The translations under genes and the position numbers were made by a program. Below, piece by piece: positions 1,424 through 59,612 of a stretch of 64,000 nucleotides of DNA (within the stretch, counting starts at the first letter, position 1; each line of letters begins with the position of its first letter). The notes beneath the pieces were generated by a model. The model was not told the origin of the DNA. It worked only from the letters and a program-made list of their open reading frames with translations, and made no database searches. The stretch is from an uncultured Phascolarctobacterium sp. (lineage in GTDB: Bacteria > Bacillota > Negativicutes > Acidaminococcales > Acidaminococcaceae), in NCBI GenBank assembly GCA_947630795.1, contig CANRJC010000002.1, positions 1 to 64,000 on the forward strand, given 5' to 3'.

Positions 1424-2038
1424 CTATGATCTTAAAGACTGTTTGAATATAGCATCGACACAGGCGACAGGATATTTTTGTTTCAATGAGTATGATATAG
1501 AAGATAAGATGCTTTTGATCTGTTTTCTCAGTTCTTCTATTTCCGAGGAACGATCGTCGGAGGATCTTTTGAGTGCCATTATGCGATAGGCAATATCTTT
1601 GGCCTTCTCCAAACATTCTTGTTCATAAGCGATCTTCAACAGCAATATTTTGCTGTCTTGATCTATGGAATATAGCAATTCTTTTATAGCGAGCACTAAT
1701 AATCGATAGAATTTATCTCGCTCAAGTCGTGCCTCGATAACTGTATTGCCTTCCTTCAAGGAAATAAAACGGCTGGCATTTACGGTCCGCACCTGATTAA
1801 AAACAGCGTATGTATCGTTATTTTTCAAAGAGGAGGGAAGGGACTCGATTTTTCCCAAAAGGACCTTATTTATGCTACTGCCGTTACCTGAACTGGTCAA
1901 AGGCATGACGATAAAGGTCGACTTATCGTTGTTTTTCTTCAATACTACGGCAAGATGCTTTCCGTCAAATTCACAGGGCTTCACGGGATCAAAGATAACA
2001 TTGTATATGCGACCGATCTTAATATCGCTTGCTCGCAC
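1424..2038 (-). CDS. PemK/MazF-like endoribonuclease toxin with C-terminal helical extension
   Basis: The 204-residue product starts at GTG (2038-2036), with AAGGAG eight bases upstream. Residues about 6-120 fit the PemK/MazF fold: GRIYNVIFDPV near the start, then HLAVVLKKNN and FIVMPLTSS, the usual order of strand, conserved VVL strand and PLTS. Known members are sequence-specific endoribonucleases. Residues about 120-204 are predicted helical and charged, an extension absent from short MazF proteins. Base composition is clearly richer in A+T than the flanking housekeeping genes, which suggests transfer. No MazE/PemI-like antitoxin gene adjoins it; instead a candidate small RNA with its own terminator lies just upstream on the same strand. 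MazF-type toxins and type III ToxN toxins share a fold, so assignment to type II or III is open. Confidence 0.72.
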   Translation of the reverse strand: MRASDIKIGRIYNVIFDPVKPCEFDGKHLAVVLKKNNDKSTFIVMPLTSSGNGSSINKVLLGKIESLPSSLKNNDTYAVFNQVRTVNASRFISLKEGNTVIEARLERDKFYRLLVLAIKELLYSIDQDSKILLLKIAYEQECLEKAKDIAYRIMALKRSSDDRSSEIEELRKQIKSILSSISYSLKQKYPVACVDAIFKQSLRS

Positions 2039-2081: not shown

Positions 2082-2253
2082 AAAGAAAAAGAGCCCCGCT
2101 GTCAAGCGAAGCTCTTATCTTGACGTTTTCTTTAGGTGTAAGCATCTGGTCGATCTGCGGTAACGATACACCCGAAACAACACTCCGCACAGTACGTAAG
2201 TCGACATATTCTTTGCTTCAACATAAAGTTTGTCGCTTGCACCGTCGGTTACT
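2082..2253 (-). ncRNA. Candidate ~170-nt small RNA upstream of the PemK-like toxin
   Basis: On the minus strand a consensus promoter (2259-2287) is followed about 165 bases later by an intrinsic terminator: stem AAGAGC/GCTCTT with inner CGCT/AGCG (2089-2116), then TTTTTCTTTC. No convincing protein is encoded between them. Pairing seen by eye includes GGTGTA/TACACC and GTAAC/GTTAC. Next to and inside the terminator, GTCAAG and CTTGAC can pair in a way that excludes the terminator stem, so read-through into the toxin gene could be modulated. No tandem repeats typical of ToxI RNA are evident. It could be an RNA antitoxin, an attenuating leader or an unrelated small RNA. Confidence 0.6.
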
Positions 2254-13624: not shown

Positions 13625-13653
13625 TTGACTTTATCTTTAAAGCTTGTTACAAT
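13625..13653 (+). promoter_or_regulatory. Promoter of structured RNA copy A
   Basis: TTGACT (13625-13630), 17-base spacer, TACAAT (13648-13653). The same boxes, spacing and flanks (AAAGCGTTGACTTT, TTGTTACAATAAAG) occur before copy B. Confidence 0.85.
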
Positions 13654-13659
13654 AAAGAT

Positions 13660-13825
13660 GCTTTAATCGCCGATCTCGCAAGAGGAGCGGCGGGACCGCA
13701 AGGGGTCAGCCCCGTTGTTTGCGGTACAAACGAATAGAGTAACGATCTAGCCGCTCACCGACAGCGGGATAGAAAACAGTCGGATCGAAGTGAGCACGTC
13801 CTTCGCCAATGGCGAGGGATTTTTT
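13660..13825 (+). ncRNA. Structured small RNA, copy A, upstream of an Rpn gene
   Basis: About 166 bases between promoter and intrinsic terminator (CCTTCGCC/GGCGAGGG, 13800-13818, then TTTTTT). Stems seen by eye: CGCCG (13668-13672) with CGGCG (13688-13692); ACCGCAA (13695-13701) with TTGCGGT (13719-13725) enclosing GGGG/CCCC; CCGCT (13751-13755) with AGCGG (13763-13767). The loop of the last stem holds CCGAC (13758-13762), which can pair with GTCGG (13779-13783) to form an H-type pseudoknot. Copy B keeps all of these with compensatory changes. I do not recognise the class; it could be a free small RNA or a riboswitch-like leader of the nuclease gene 128 bases downstream. Confidence 0.75.
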
Positions 13826-13953
13826 GTTTTTAAGTATAAAAGTTCGGCACCCCAAGTTTTTCTTCTCATTTTGTCCCTAAAAATGTATAATAAAAGTACG
13901 GTCACGTTAGGGGCAAGGTGAGTAAAATAAAAAAGCAAAAGGAGGAAAAGCCT

Positions 13954-14823
13954 ATGCCCCGAATGAAAAGGACCGTAAAGGACAGCGTCTTCACTTATCT
14001 TTTTAAAGATCCGAGGTACATCCTGCAGCTCTATAAGTCGTTGCACCGTGAGGACGATGCCACCGAAGAAAAAGATATCGAATTGCTGACCTTGACCAAT
14101 GTTCTGGTCGATGACATCTACAACGACTTAGGCTTTTTGGTGAAAGACAGGCTGATCGTTTTAGTGGAAGCTCAGTCCACATTTTCTCGGAACATCGCCT
14201 ATCGTATGCTGCTTTACATGACAGCAACTTTTAAAGCCTACGCCGATAGAGAAAAGATGGACAGCCACTCGCAGAAAGATCTGCACTTCCCTCATGCGGA
14301 GGTATATGTTATCTACACGGGGGAGGGAGAAGTCCCCGCTGTCTGTCGATTTTCGGATCTCTGTGAAAAAGGGAAAGATGAAGAAGATGTAGATGTAGAA
14401 ACGAGAGTTCATGTACTGCGGGGCGATGCCTCCGACAAAAACGACATCGTGAACCAATACGTGCGCTTTTGCAAGATTGCCGATGAAGAGCGGCGCAAAG
14501 GCGGCCCCACAGTTGAAACCGTAAAGGCGATCATAGATCGCTGTATAGAAGAAGGAGTATTGCCCGTTTTTTTGGCTTCACGGCGGAGGGAGGTAGAGGA
14601 TATCATGGTAGTATTGTTCGATGAAAAGAAAGTAAGAGAGATCCACGAGTACAATGTCAGGAAAGATGCTTTAGAAGAGGGCAGAGAAGAAGGCATCTCT
14701 GCCATGGTCACTACCTTGAAAAAGTTCGCGGGCGAAAAACGGGTCGTGGCACAGGAATTGGTGGAGAATTTCAAACTCTCGCCCGAGGTTGCCGCGGCGA
14801 AGGTGGAGCAGTATTGGAACTGA
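13954..14823 (+). CDS. Rpn-family PD-(D/E)XK nuclease (putative transposase-like), copy A
   Basis: The 289-residue product starts at ATG 13954 after AAAGGAGG. It opens with KRTVKDSVFTYLFKDPRYILQLYKSL, typical of the Rpn (recombination-promoting nuclease, transposase_31-like) family. The PD-(D/E)XK core is visible as VDDIYNDLGFLVKDRLIVLVEAQST, with the Asp and the EXQ pair. The C-terminal part carries REIHEYNVRKDALEEGREEG, the variable charged hinge common in this family, then a short helical tail. E. coli relatives cut DNA and have been linked to phage defence. A paralogue with its own RNA copy lies at 55446. Both genes have a TATAAT about 60 bases upstream (13888-13893 here). Confidence 0.88.
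   Translation: MPRMKRTVKDSVFTYLFKDPRYILQLYKSLHREDDATEEKDIELLTLTNVLVDDIYNDLGFLVKDRLIVLVEAQSTFSRNIAYRMLLYMTATFKAYADREKMDSHSQKDLHFPHAEVYVIYTGEGEVPAVCRFSDLCEKGKDEEDVDVETRVHVLRGDASDKNDIVNQYVRFCKIADEERRKGGPTVETVKAIIDRCIEEGVLPVFLASRRREVEDIMVVLFDEKKVREIHEYNVRKDALEEGREEGISAMVTTLKKFAGEKRVVAQELVENFKLSPEVAAAKVEQYWN
14605..14823 (+). other. Possible internal start for a C-terminal small Rpn protein (72 aa)
   Basis: In-frame ATG 14605 is preceded by GGAGGGAGGTAGAGGATATC, a strong ribosome-binding-like stretch. Translation from it would give MVVLFDEKKVREIHEYN and the C-terminal tail. In E. coli, rpn genes are reported to encode intragenic C-terminal proteins that block the full-length toxin. The same signal exists in copy B at 56088. 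The GGAGG also encodes part of RRREVED, so it may be coincidental. Confidence 0.4.
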
Positions 14824-30635: not shown

Positions 30636-30806
30636 AAAAAAGCGCACTCCGACAGGGAATGCGCATAGTTCTACCTACACTTTGATCTGCAATGCGTCTC
30701 GTCCCGGTCTTAAAGATCCAAGCGAATATTGACTCATAAAATTTTTGCGGTGCCCGGGCCTTGCGGTGCGACTCCCGATAGGATGTCGCCCGCTGCCGCG
30801 CTCACC
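30636..30806 (-). promoter_or_regulatory. Structured leader RNA with terminator upstream of the pan operon
   Basis: Between the promoter (30813-30841) and a terminator (GCGCATTCC/GGAGTGCGC on the minus strand, 30642-30664, then TTTTTT) lie about 145 bases with strong pairing: GCGAC/GTCGC and GCGGTG with either of two CACCGC copies. The terminator ends about 60 bases before the DUF2520 start codon, the usual layout of an attenuator or riboswitch. It does not match the T-box, TPP, FMN, SAM-I or cobalamin motifs as I know them. Rfam describes a pan motif before panB genes, which could be this. Confidence 0.6.
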
Positions 30807-53152: not shown

Positions 53153-53605
53153 GCGCTAAAGGGGAGCATTTGAGCGGGTACGCGGCAAACAAAAAAATTT
53201 TCAGTGAAGGAAGAGGGGAACTCACACAATAGCGAAGAACAAGACCCAAGGAGCCGAGTTTTGTACTTGCAGAGTCGTACGTTATTTATATAGAGTAGGA
53301 AGAAGAAAGTTCGGGCAGCGGCGGCAAAAGCAGAGCAGCATCGGGATCGACGAAAATTTGAACAAGCGAGCAAAAAACGATGGGACGCGAAAGCGTCTCT
53401 TTTTTTGTAAAAATTTTTAAGAAAATTCACAAAAGTCTTGTGGGGGGGTACAGGCATGCTATAATTACCGTAAACGAGGACGAAGTTTTTTCCTCGTTCG
53501 GTAAACTGCAAAACTCTCTGCGACCGAGCGATACGCAAAGGAAACAAGGACACTTTGGTGGGGATCGACCGCCCAGAATTTTGCAAAAGCAAAAAAAGGA
53601 GAAAG
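53153..53605. other. Leader region of the third porin gene
   Basis: From 53410 it repeats the segment found at 51275, including ATGCTATAATTACCG (TATAAT 53460-53465, extended -10), giving a leader of about 140 bases. GGGACGCGAAAGCGTCTCTTTTTTTG (53380-53407) is another terminator-like hairpin with a T-run (GACGC/GCGTC). No gene is seen between 53153 and 53605. Confidence 0.55.
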
Positions 53606-54844
53606 ATGATGAAGAAAAGTCTTATCTTTGCCATGGCTATGGCTTTAGGCGTCACTGCCTCTGCCTATGCCGCCAACCCTTTCAGTGATGTACCTGCAGG
53701 CCATTGGGCTTATGACAGCATCGAGAAACTGGCTGCTGCCGGCGTCATCGACGGCTACGGCGACGGCACTTTCGGCGGCGACAAATTGATGACCCGCTAC
53801 GAGATGGCTCAGATCGTTGCCCGTGCCATGGCCAACGGCGCCAACGTGGACAAATTGGCCGCAGAATTTGCAGACGAGCTGGATGCTCTGGGCGTTCGCG
53901 TCGCCAACTTGGAGAATAAGGCCGATGCCGTGAAGATCGCCGGTGAGATCCGCGCTCACTATGCCAACATCAGCGGTGACCGCCCTTTCTTCAAGGATGA
54001 TTCTTGGTCAAAACTGCGTACTCGTATCTGGTTCAAGGGCCAAGTGAACGACGATTGGACCTATGTGGGCATGATCCAAAACGAGCAGGACTTCCGTACC
54101 GATACCGGCGATGAAGAATTAAAATTTCAAAGGGCCTATCTTGAAGGTCGTTTGGGCGGCGTTGACGTGCAGGCCGGCCGTATCGACACCACCGACATCA
54201 CCGGCGGCAACATTTACGATATCCGCTTCGACGGTGTGAAACTGACCTACGGCAAAGAGATCAAATTGATCGGCCGGGCCGGCAAAGCCACCGATGCTTT
54301 CGAATACGGGCTGAGACACGGTGGCGATACCTATTCGATAGAAGCAGTAGCCAAATTAGGCAAGGCCGGGGATATCCACGCCGGCTGGTGGAAATTCAAA
54401 GATCTTACTTTCAACAGCATCACTCCCGACGACAACATCTGGACCGTCGGACTGAATTTGAACGTAGCCAAAGATCTGGAGTTGACTGCCGATTACATCA
54501 AAGGCGATTATAGTGATTATGAATGGTTTACGGATCTGACCGATCATGACGACAGCTATGTGATCGGGCTGAACTACAAGGGCGCTTCCGCCAACAAGCC
54601 CGGCAGCTACGGCCTTCATGCCAAATACTATCATCAGGGAGCTTCTTCCTACATCGCTCATACCATGAACGGTTTGCATGGGGAGGGTGTTGAGTATACA
54701 GGCTTCAAAGGTTACAGCCTCATGGGTTACTACACTGTGGCTAAGAACATGGTGGCCGGCGTTGAGTGGTACGATCTCAAGCCTTTGGAATACCCCGATA
54801 TGGAGATGAGGACTTTGTGGACCCAGTTGGTGCTGAGCTTCTAA
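53606..54844 (+). CDS. SLH-domain outer-membrane porin (OmpM type), third copy
   Basis: From ATG 53606 or 53609 (AAAGGAGAAAG upstream) the product has about 412 residues; the in-frame GTG 53555 lies before this ribosome site and is rejected. Signal peptide KKSLIFAMAMALGVTASAYA, SLH domain, coiled coil and barrel follow as in the copy at 51833; it ends LVLSF. Close similarity runs through the barrel (TDTGDE, QRAYLEGRLGGVDVQAGRIDTTD, GLHAKYYH, MAGVEWYDLK-type stretches), with differences in segments likely to be surface loops. The two genes are a tandem pair, each with its own promoter region and terminator. Confidence 0.95.
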   Translation: MMKKSLIFAMAMALGVTASAYAANPFSDVPAGHWAYDSIEKLAAAGVIDGYGDGTFGGDKLMTRYEMAQIVARAMANGANVDKLAAEFADELDALGVRVANLENKADAVKIAGEIRAHYANISGDRPFFKDDSWSKLRTRIWFKGQVNDDWTYVGMIQNEQDFRTDTGDEELKFQRAYLEGRLGGVDVQAGRIDTTDITGGNIYDIRFDGVKLTYGKEIKLIGRAGKATDAFEYGLRHGGDTYSIEAVAKLGKAGDIHAGWWKFKDLTFNSITPDDNIWTVGLNLNVAKDLELTADYIKGDYSDYEWFTDLTDHDDSYVIGLNYKGASANKPGSYGLHAKYYHQGASSYIAHTMNGLHGEGVEYTGFKGYSLMGYYTVAKNMVAGVEWYDLKPLEYPDMEMRTLWTQLVLSF

Positions 54845-54975: not shown

Positions 54976-55004
54976 TTGACTTTTGTTTTCGGCCTTGTTA
55001 CAAT
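54976..55004 (+). promoter_or_regulatory. Promoter of structured RNA copy B
   Basis: TTGACT (54976-54981), 17-base spacer, TACAAT (54999-55004), identical boxes and spacing to copy A. Confidence 0.85.
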
Positions 55005-55010
55005 AAAGGT

Positions 55011-55187
55011 GCTTGATTCGTCGCCTACCTCACGGTATGAGCGACGGGACCGCAAGGGTTCAGCCCCGTTGTTTGCGGAAGAAATGAATAGAGCAGATAG
55101 CAGCAAACGAGCCGTTAGCCGACAAGCGGCATAGAAACAGTCGGACCGAAGTGAGCACGTCCTTCGCCGTTAGGCGAAGGCTTTTTT
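55011..55187 (+). ncRNA. Structured small RNA, copy B, upstream of an Rpn gene
   Basis: About 177 bases ending in terminator CCTTCGCC/GGCGAAGG (55161-55180) and TTTTTT. Stems correspond to copy A: CGTCGC (55019-55024)/GCGACG (55041-55046), ACCGCAA (55049-55055)/TTGCGG (55073-55078), and CCGTT (55112-55116)/AA-CGG (55124-55129, one bulged G). Loop CCGAC (55119-55123) can pair with GTCGG (55140-55144). Relative to copy A, stem pairs change C-G to U-A at two places while pairing is kept. The strongly shared blocks are GGGACCGCAAGG, CAGCCCCGTTGTTTGCGG, ATAGAAA-CAGTCGGA-CGAAGTGAGCACGTCCTTCGCC in parts. Confidence 0.75.
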
Positions 55188-55194
55188 GTTTTCT

Positions 55195-55345
55195 GTCGCA
55201 CGCCTAACGCTTCGACAGGCTCAGCGGGCGGCGTGCTCGGTGTATATAGCCGGTCACTAAGCTTGTCCCGGGCTTCCCCAGCAGAGTCATATAAATCAGT
55301 TGGGTGTTCAAGGGGAAGGAAGTGCTCGGCGCAGCAGAATGTCCC
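55195..55345 (+). repeat. Dispersed repeat block between RNA copy B and Rpn copy B
   Basis: Relative to locus A, where the RNA terminator region runs almost straight into CCAAGTTTTTCTTCTCATTTTG, about 140 extra bases stand here. They contain AGCTTGTCCCGGGCTTCCCC-AGC (55260-55282), the reverse complement of 15017-15039, and AAGGGGAAGGAAG. It looks like an inserted mobile or palindromic repeat element. Confidence 0.6.
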
Positions 55346-55445
55346 AAGTTTTTCTTCTCATTTTGCCCCTAAAAATGTATAATAAAAGTACGGTCACATC
55401 AGGGGCAAGGTGAGTAAAATAAAAAAGCAAAAGGAGAAAAAGCCT

Positions 55446-56333
55446 ATGCCCCAGATGAAAAGGACCGTAAAAGACAGCGTTTTCACTTATCTCTTCCAAG
55501 ACCCTAAGTACACGTTGCAGCTCTATAAGTCGCTGCACGGCGATGACGACGGCGTCGAAGAGAAAGACATCGAATTGATCACGCTGGCCAACGTCTTGGT
55601 CGACGACCTCTACAACGACTTAGGCTTTTTGGTGAAAGACAAGCTGATCATTTTGGTGGAAGCCCAATCGACTTTTTCCCCGAATCTTGCGTATCGCATG
55701 CATTTATACTCGGCGCTCACTTCCAAGAATTATGCGGATGAAAACAAACTGGACTCATTCGGTTCCAAGAAGATGCCCATCCCTATGTTCGAGCCCTACG
55801 TTATCTACACCGGCGACCAAGAAGTTCCCGACACTCTGCGTCTTTCCGATCTGTACATAGTAAAGGGCAGAGCGCGGGTAGAAACGGAAGTGCAAGTGCT
55901 GCGGGGAGATGCTGCCGACAAAAACGACATCGTGAACCAGTACGTGCGCTTTTGCAAGATCGCTGACGAAGAGCGGCGCAAAAGCGGCTCCACAGTTGAA
56001 ACCGTAAAGGCGATCATAGACCGTTGCATCGAAGAGAATGTGCTGGCAGACTTTTTGGCGTCGCGGCGGAAGGAGGTAGAAGACATCATGGTAGTTTTAT
56101 ACGATGAAGCAAAAGTAAGAGAGATCCACGAATACAATGTCAGAAAGGATGCCTTAGAAGAAGGAGTGGAGAGAGGCAGAGACGAAGGCACCGAAAAAGG
56201 TATCTCTGCCATGGTCCTTGCGCTTAAGGCTTTTGCCGTAACTAAAGATGCCGTGGCGGAGAAACTTATGCAATTCTACCAACTTTCTCCGCAAGTTGCC
56301 GAGGCTAAGGTGGAGCAGTATTGGGATCAATAA
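55446..56333 (+). CDS. Rpn-family PD-(D/E)XK nuclease, copy B
   Basis: The 295-residue product starts at ATG 55446 after AAAGGAG and is a close paralogue of the protein at 13954: KRTVKDSVFTYLFQDPKYTLQLYKSLHG, VLVDDLYNDLGFLVKDKLIILVEAQST with the Asp and EXQ of the nuclease core, DKNDIVNQYVRFCKIADEERR. Differences cluster in the region about 90-150 and in the charged hinge, which is longer here (EEGVERGRDEGTEKGIS). TATAAT at 55379-55384 is at the same place as in copy A. Nuclease and defence roles are inferred from the family. Confidence 0.88.
   Translation: MPQMKRTVKDSVFTYLFQDPKYTLQLYKSLHGDDDGVEEKDIELITLANVLVDDLYNDLGFLVKDKLIILVEAQSTFSPNLAYRMHLYSALTSKNYADENKLDSFGSKKMPIPMFEPYVIYTGDQEVPDTLRLSDLYIVKGRARVETEVQVLRGDAADKNDIVNQYVRFCKIADEERRKSGSTVETVKAIIDRCIEENVLADFLASRRKEVEDIMVVLYDEAKVREIHEYNVRKDALEEGVERGRDEGTEKGISAMVLALKAFAVTKDAVAEKLMQFYQLSPQVAEAKVEQYWDQ
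56088..56333 (+). other. Possible internal start for a C-terminal small Rpn protein (81 aa)
   Basis: In-frame ATG 56088 is preceded by AAGGAGG (56070-56076) with an 11-base spacer, matching the position of the internal ATG in copy A. The product would begin MVVLYDEAKVREIHEYN. Confidence 0.4.
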
Positions 56334-59377: not shown

Positions 59378-59395
59378 TTTTTTGACGAACAAAAA

Positions 59396-59612
59396 GATAG
59401 AGGCGCGGGAAGCATGAGTAACCTGATGAGCGGCAGCGATGAAACGGGAGAAAGGGCCACCGCCGAAGTGGAGCGCCGGGCGCGGCGGTCTGCTGGGACG
59501 GCAGCGAAGAGCTGACGTACTGTCGCCGAGCATGAGGCTTGAGCGGAGGGCTATCTCGCATTACAGGCATTGTAACCGTTGAGAGCCGCCGAAGCCCTCA
59601 ACGGTTTTCTTT
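59396..59612 (+). promoter_or_regulatory. Lysine riboswitch (L box) with terminator
   Basis: Conserved aptamer segments appear in order: AGAGGCGCGG, ATGAGTAAC, GGGAGAAAGGGCCACCGCCGAAG in part, TGCTGGGACGGCAG, and GGAGGGCTATCTCGC closing the junction. The aptamer covers about 59396-59562. The terminator stem AACCGTTGAG/CTCAACGGTT (59574-59606) and TTTTCTTTT follow. Lysine binding favours termination, cutting expression of the dapB-asd-lysC-dapA operon, whose first start codon is 22 bases beyond. Confidence 0.95.

What the first reader, a model, noticed from the sequence alone, without database searches (positions are those of the whole stretch)
13625..14823. Duplicated module: structured small RNA plus Rpn nuclease
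Seen: at 13.6-14.8 kb and 54.98-56.33 kb the same order occurs: TTGACT-17-TACAAT promoter, RNA of about 170 bases, intrinsic terminator, a second TATAAT, then an Rpn-family nuclease gene. RNA, upstream elements and gene are all conserved between the copies although the loci are 41 kb apart. Known: Rpn proteins are PD-(D/E)XK nucleases linked to phage defence and toxicity. Inference: the RNA may be a functional partner (antitoxin, sensor or guide-like element) or a regulatory leader of the nuclease. I know of no described Rpn system with a dedicated RNA.
Basis: partly seen in the sequence, partly recalled or inferred. Interest (0 to 1): 0.82.

Follow-up and report, generated by a model that had tools for sequence, protein, structure and literature searches.

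The report
Antitoxin-like RNA beside multicopy Rpn nuclease
A gut bacterium carries eleven copies of a two-part unit, a small folded RNA followed by a DNA-cutting enzyme gene, and the RNA contains the same knot-shaped fold that neutralises a known RNA-cutting toxin (CptN), suggesting that an RNA antitoxin has been paired with a different kind of toxin.

Summary
The genome holds 11 copies of the RNA and 11 Rpn genes, paired one-to-one on the same strand with 127-261 bases between terminator and ATG. A sister species (a rabbit-gut Phascolarctobacterium MAG) has about 10 RNAs, five with Rpn directly downstream and a sixth by synteny. RNA and gene are both under purifying selection. Rfam has no match. 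A covariance model built only from these RNAs found, as its best hit elsewhere in the family, a CptI antitoxin in front of a CptN type III toxin. The RNA's 3' half is a CptI-type H-type pseudoknot: same stem and loop geometry, compensatory changes, and all 17 full-length copies beat 5,100 shuffles. No CptN exists in either genome. The proteins are divergent Rpn with four-residue repeats and a conserved internal RpnS start. Best reading: a type III-like module in which a CptI-derived RNA, enlarged by a 5' domain, was recruited to Rpn, probably as an inhibitor additional to RpnS. The RNA identity is strong; inhibition of Rpn is inferred. It is not a formal CptIN member: one recognisable unit instead of tandem repeats, a different toxin, a second promoter. 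At least one RNA lacks Rpn, and one Rpn lacks the RNA.

The parts
13625..13653 (+). RNA promoter, copy 1 (TTGACT-17-TACAAT, TG before the -10)
   Evidence: conserved in the copies that include this region
13654..13825 (+). Structured RNA, copy 1 (about 170 nt including terminator)
   Evidence: CM R1 match 195 bits; 11 copies in genome; no Rfam family
13750..13783 (+). CptI-type H-type pseudoknot unit, copy 1 (GCCGC-UCACCGACA-GCGGG-AUAGAAAACA-GUCGG)
13798..13825 (+). Intrinsic terminator of the RNA, copy 1
13863..13916 (+). Rpn promoter (TTCTCA-17-TATAAT) overlapped by inverted repeat TTGTCCCT/AGGGGCAA, copy 1
   Evidence: conserved between copies
13954..14823 (+). Rpn-family gene, copy 1 (RpnL, 289 aa)
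14588..14823 (+). Internal ribosome site GGGAGGTAGA and RpnS reading frame (ATG at 14605), copy 1
54976..55004 (+). RNA promoter, copy 2
55005..55187 (+). Structured RNA, copy 2
   Evidence: CM R1 182 bits
55111..55144 (+). CptI-type pseudoknot unit, copy 2 (GCCGU-UAGCCGACAA-GCGGC-AUAGAAACA-GUCGG)
55161..55187 (+). Intrinsic terminator of the RNA, copy 2
55355..55408 (+). Rpn promoter with inverted repeat, copy 2
55446..56333 (+). Rpn-family gene, copy 2 (RpnL, 295 aa)
56071..56333 (+). Internal ribosome site AGGAGGTAGA and RpnS reading frame (ATG at 56088), copy 2

Best explanation
Each copy is a toxin-antitoxin-like module. A strong promoter makes a stand-alone RNA of about 170 nt that ends at its own terminator. 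The RNA has a 5' domain of two hairpins and a 3' CptI-type pseudoknot. A second, operator-flanked promoter makes an Rpn nuclease (RpnL), which also encodes its own C-terminal inhibitor RpnS from an internal start. The RNA derives from a type III (CptI) antitoxin whose CptN partner is gone; it most likely binds and restrains RpnL as an additional inhibitor, released when the RNA falls or is degraded, for example during phage infection. Shown by sequence: linkage, pseudoknot, RpnS start, purifying selection. Inferred: binding, inhibition, defence role.
For: 11 RNAs and 11 Rpn genes, one-to-one, same strand. In the sister species five RNAs have Rpn directly downstream and the window locus is syntenic. 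The unbiased CM search hit a CptI-CptN locus (E 4e-8; CptN NF047359 7e-48, PDB 4rmo 2e-69). More CptI arrays match R1 at 33-43 bits. All 17 RNAs score 34-46 against CptI units vs a maximum of 30 in 5,100 shuffles. Pseudoknot helices are 95% paired, covariation score reached by 0/500 shuffles. A degenerate CptI pattern in 381 Negativicutes hits only these RNAs, CptN-linked arrays, three orphan units and one coding coincidence. No CptN in either genome. RNA distance/dS 0.27, Rpn dN/dS 0.22. RpnS start 16/16 and four-residue repeats, as in known Rpn toxins (PMC10327210). Promoter, RNA, terminator, toxin order as in type III loci (PMC5086642).
Against: No direct evidence that the RNA binds Rpn. 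Rpn already has a protein antitoxin. Rpn has its own promoter. RNA and Rpn distances correlate only weakly among copies (Mantel r 0.27-0.43, p about 0.015), so partners are not strictly co-inherited. One RNA in the sister genome has VapBC instead of Rpn downstream, another has a GIY-YIG ORF before the contig ends; one Rpn (C22) has no RNA. Rpn is not the MazF/Kid fold that CptI is known to bind.
Confidence: 0.45

Rival explanations
1. The RNA is an orphan CptI antitoxin that protects the cell against CptN toxins on incoming mobile elements (anti-addiction); Rpn is only a neighbour.
For: Orphan single CptI units with no CptN beside them occur in three other Negativicutes. CptN circulates in the same family (G010, G017, G068). 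Two sister-species RNAs sit beside other genes.
Against: 11/11 linkage to Rpn. The extra 5' domain is conserved in every full-length copy. The kink base U30, whose deletion abolishes CptI activity (PMC4627078), is G in 13 of 17 copies.
Confidence: 0.2
2. The RNA regulates rpn expression, by read-through past its terminator or by acting on rpn mRNA, and is not a protein ligand.
For: It lies immediately upstream, and alternative pairings of the 5' strand (P1 or P1') are possible. Type III toxins are made by read-through (PMC5086642).
Against: Rpn has its own conserved promoter and operator-like repeat. Spacers of 28-323 bp with repeat inserts are tolerated. No pairing between RNA and rpn mRNA beyond shuffles (mean z 0.05).
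Confidence: 0.17
3. Co-duplicated cassette: RNA and Rpn spread together as a dispersed repeat and homogenise by gene conversion, without functional coupling.
For: High copy number and similarity; weak co-phylogeny; several copies lie downstream of porin genes.
Against: RNA divergence is only 0.27 of dS and every full-length RNA keeps promoter, pseudoknot and terminator, whereas the spacers between RNA and gene are not conserved.
Confidence: 0.15

Closest known systems
CptIN type III toxin-antitoxin family (Eubacterium rectale CptIN, PDB 4RMO; PMC4627078)
   Same: H-type pseudoknot with the same S1/S2 geometry, near-identical core (CCGCTGACCGAyAnGCGG.ATATAA..GTCGG), upstream promoter, terminator between RNA and toxin gene
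   Different: One recognisable unit instead of tandem 45-nt repeats, an added 5' two-hairpin domain, Rpn instead of CptN, and a separate promoter for the protein gene
Rpn (RpnL/RpnS) nucleases (PF04754/TIGR01784; PMC10327210, PMC5350276)
   Same: Sub-threshold family HMM matches, variable four-residue repeats, conserved internal start with ribosome site for RpnS
   Different: Divergent from Pfam/NCBIfam models, 11 copies in one genome, preceded by a dedicated structured RNA, which I found described for no Rpn
Orphan CptI units in other Negativicutes (G110, G224, G244)
   Same: Single pseudoknot with no CptN beside it; promoter and terminator in at least two
   Different: Single copy, no 5' domain, no Rpn

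Membership tests
Type III TA, CptIN | Antitoxin RNA with CptI H-type pseudoknot | tested here: met
Type III TA, CptIN | Tandem antitoxin repeats | tested here: not met
   One recognisable CptI unit per RNA; the 5' half folds as two hairpins
Type III TA, CptIN | CptN (Kid/MazF-fold RNase) encoded downstream | tested here: not met
   Rpn-family gene downstream; no NF047359 match in G000 or G001
Type III TA, CptIN | Intrinsic terminator between antitoxin RNA and toxin gene | tested here: met
Type III TA, CptIN | Single-promoter operon | tested here: not met
   Conserved second promoter for the protein gene
Type III TA, CptIN | RNA neutralises the toxin by direct binding | not testable with these tools
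   Needs co-expression and pull-down
Rpn (RpnL/RpnS) | Family HMM above cut-off | tested here: inconclusive
   PF04754 in 13/16 members, best E 4e-4; TIGR01784 in 13/16, best E 2e-6; one copy just over the PF04754 cut-off
Rpn (RpnL/RpnS) | Internal translation start for RpnS | tested here: met
   Ribosome site GGAGGTAGA and in-frame ATG in 16/16
Rpn (RpnL/RpnS) | Variable four-residue repeats near the RpnS start | tested here: met
   RAEG/MKKG-type repeats of varying number
Rpn (RpnL/RpnS) | PD-(D/E)XK fold | tested here: inconclusive
   Model pLDDT 67.6; no PDB match at E<=0.001, though several weak top hits are PD-(D/E)XK nucleases
Known Rfam RNA | Match above gathering score | tested here: not met

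The most novel reading that the evidence does not exclude
A type III-like toxin-antitoxin system in which a CptI-derived RNA pseudoknot inhibits a PD-(D/E)XK DNA nuclease (Rpn) instead of a MazF-fold RNase, giving a toxin held by both a protein (RpnS) and an RNA antitoxin and multiplied to 11 loci per genome.
Probability: 0.35. Interest if true: 0.85.

Novelty: new variant of a known kind. Interest (0 to 1): 0.68.

Why it matters
The three type III families described in the reviews I read (ToxIN, CptIN, TenpIN) pair a pseudoknot RNA with an endoribonuclease that processes it. If the pseudoknot has been re-used to control an unrelated DNA nuclease, RNA antitoxins can change partner across folds. 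Rpn toxins would gain a second layer of control, and RNA-restrained toxins could hide in front of other toxin families. It is directly testable in laboratory E. coli.

Tried and rejected
Known Rfam RNA: no gathering match to the RNA in window or modules, and at E<=10 only chance hits. Antisense pairing of the RNA with its rpn mRNA: mean z 0.05. RNA-guided nuclease: no hypervariable segment in the RNA alignment. Phage-borne module: pattern and protein scans of IMG/VR found none; 2 distant Rpn hits in phage records at 26% identity. Covariation within the genus: copies too similar to test; P1 and P1' pairings cannot be separated. Foldseek on the Rpn model: no significant hit. The Spirochaetales hit of the genome pattern looks like a chance match inside what reads as a response-regulator gene. 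The G346 hit lies inside a coding frame. Rpn homologues of another family genus (E about 1e-20) have no R1 match.

Full report
OBSERVATION. The two stretches read as described: TTGACT-17-TACAAT, an RNA of about 170 nt, an intrinsic terminator, TTCTCA-17-TATAAT, then a 289- or 295-codon gene. Promoter plus RNA are 79% identical over 236 bp and the Rpn promoter to 5' coding region 95% over 150 bp. Rfam has no matching family.

COPY NUMBER. The window belongs to a 1.91 Mb genome in 51 contigs. A DNA search gave 11 RNA copies and a protein search 11 Rpn loci; every RNA lies upstream of one Rpn on the same strand, with 127-261 bases from terminator to ATG in this genome. A Pfam search of the genome finds only these loci, 10 of the 11. 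Alignment shows three conserved blocks (RNA promoter and RNA; Rpn promoter with inverted repeat and leader; gene) separated by a spacer of 28-162 bp in this genome (up to 323 bp in the sister species) that often holds REP-like repeats. So RNA and rpn are two transcription units in fixed order.

SISTER GENOME. The only other species of the genus held (G001) is an uncultured Phascolarctobacterium MAG (isolate Lapin-001, i.e. rabbit). It has about 10 RNA loci, several cut by contig ends. Five are directly followed by Rpn. The window locus is syntenic, with the RNA at the end of contig C48 and Rpn at the start of C6, between the same neighbours. Exceptions: at C37 the RNA is followed by a VapBC-like pair and no Rpn; at C8:51.3 kb a GIY-YIG ORF follows and the contig ends soon after, so that case is undecided; the Rpn at C22 has no RNA. 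No other held family member has the module.

SELECTION. Over 15 gene copies median dS is 0.63 and dN/dS 0.22; median RNA distance is 0.27 of dS. Both parts are maintained.

WHAT THE RNA IS. A covariance model from 17 copies (R1) was run on 59 family genomes. Its best hit outside the genus, E 4e-8, is a two-repeat array upstream of a 159-aa protein that is CptN: NF047359 at 7e-48 and the solved CptN 4RMO at 2e-69. R1 also matches CptI arrays in other genomes at 33-43 bits. The published E. rectale CptI unit, read from a primer in PMC4627078, aligns without gaps to the 3' half of the C15 copy. All 17 RNAs score 34-46 against CptI units, while 5,100 dinucleotide shuffles never exceed 30. The two window copies taken singly against the E. 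rectale and G017 units were at background; the homology became clear with a wider set of CptI units, above all that of G140. Placed on the CptI pseudoknot, stems S1 and S2 pair in 95% of cells, with two-sided changes at three pairs, and the covariation score is reached by none of 500 shuffles. A degenerate CptI pattern over 381 Negativicutes occurs in the two genus members and ten others: six beside CptN, three orphan units, one coding coincidence. Neither genus member has CptN.

HOW IT DIFFERS. There is one recognisable unit, not tandem repeats. A 5' domain with two hairpins precedes it; its closing stem could pair locally (P1') or around the pseudoknot (P1), and the copies are too alike to decide. 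In the long loop, A29 is kept in all 17 copies but the kink base U30 is G in 13. In E. rectale CptI, A29U and deletion of U30 both abolish activity. This fits release from CptN recognition but does not prove it.

WHAT THE PROTEIN IS. Family HMMs match below cut-off in 13 of 16 members. The Rpn hallmarks are clear: a ribosome site GGAGGTAGA and in-frame ATG at the start of the C-terminal domain in 16 of 16 and four-residue repeats of varying number. These are the features of the RpnL/RpnS intragenic toxin-antitoxin of PMC10327210. The AlphaFold model is of low confidence (pLDDT 67.6) and has no significant structural match, although several weak top hits are PD-(D/E)XK nucleases.

MECHANISM. 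Order, terminator, pseudoknot homology and strict linkage fit an RNA antitoxin for RpnL, beside RpnS. This is inference. Weak co-phylogeny, the second promoter and the exceptions argue for caution. Antisense control of rpn mRNA is not supported. The main rival is an orphan CptI that protects against foreign CptN.

LITERATURE. The library holds no paper naming both type III toxin-antitoxin and Rpn, and the one paper joining recombination-promoting nuclease and noncoding RNA concerns pneumococcal competence and does not link the two. Subscription papers are not covered.

VERDICT.

Noticed in passing
window 2118-2226 (-) and 1424-2038 (-): A drum RNA (RF02958, 43.6 bits) ends about 80 nt upstream of a PemK/MazF-like gene with a terminator-like hairpin between, a type III-like order. 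Two of the three other drum loci inspected have an ORF of about 200 aa close by, but none is similar to this PemK-like protein.
   Followed up: partly
L100, L102, L104 (G110, G224, G244): Orphan single-unit CptI pseudoknots without CptN beside them in other Negativicutes, at least two with promoter and terminator: possible solitary antitoxins.
   Followed up: partly
L162:1-1130 (G001 C37): RNA of this family followed by a VapBC-like toxin-antitoxin pair instead of Rpn.
   Followed up: partly
window 55193-55342 and equivalent spacers in other copies: REP/MITE-like repeats (AGTTTGGAGTGTGGAGT; CTAACGCTTCGACAGGCTCAGCGGGCG) inserted between RNA and rpn in several copies and elsewhere in the genome.
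   Followed up: no
window 53555-54844; L032, L035, L036, L037: Several modules lie directly downstream of multicopy SLH-domain porin genes.
   Followed up: no
window 59390-59561 (+), 30695-30792 (-): Lysine riboswitch upstream of dapB-like and amino-acid biosynthesis genes, and a pan motif upstream of the pantothenate genes; ordinary.
   Followed up: no
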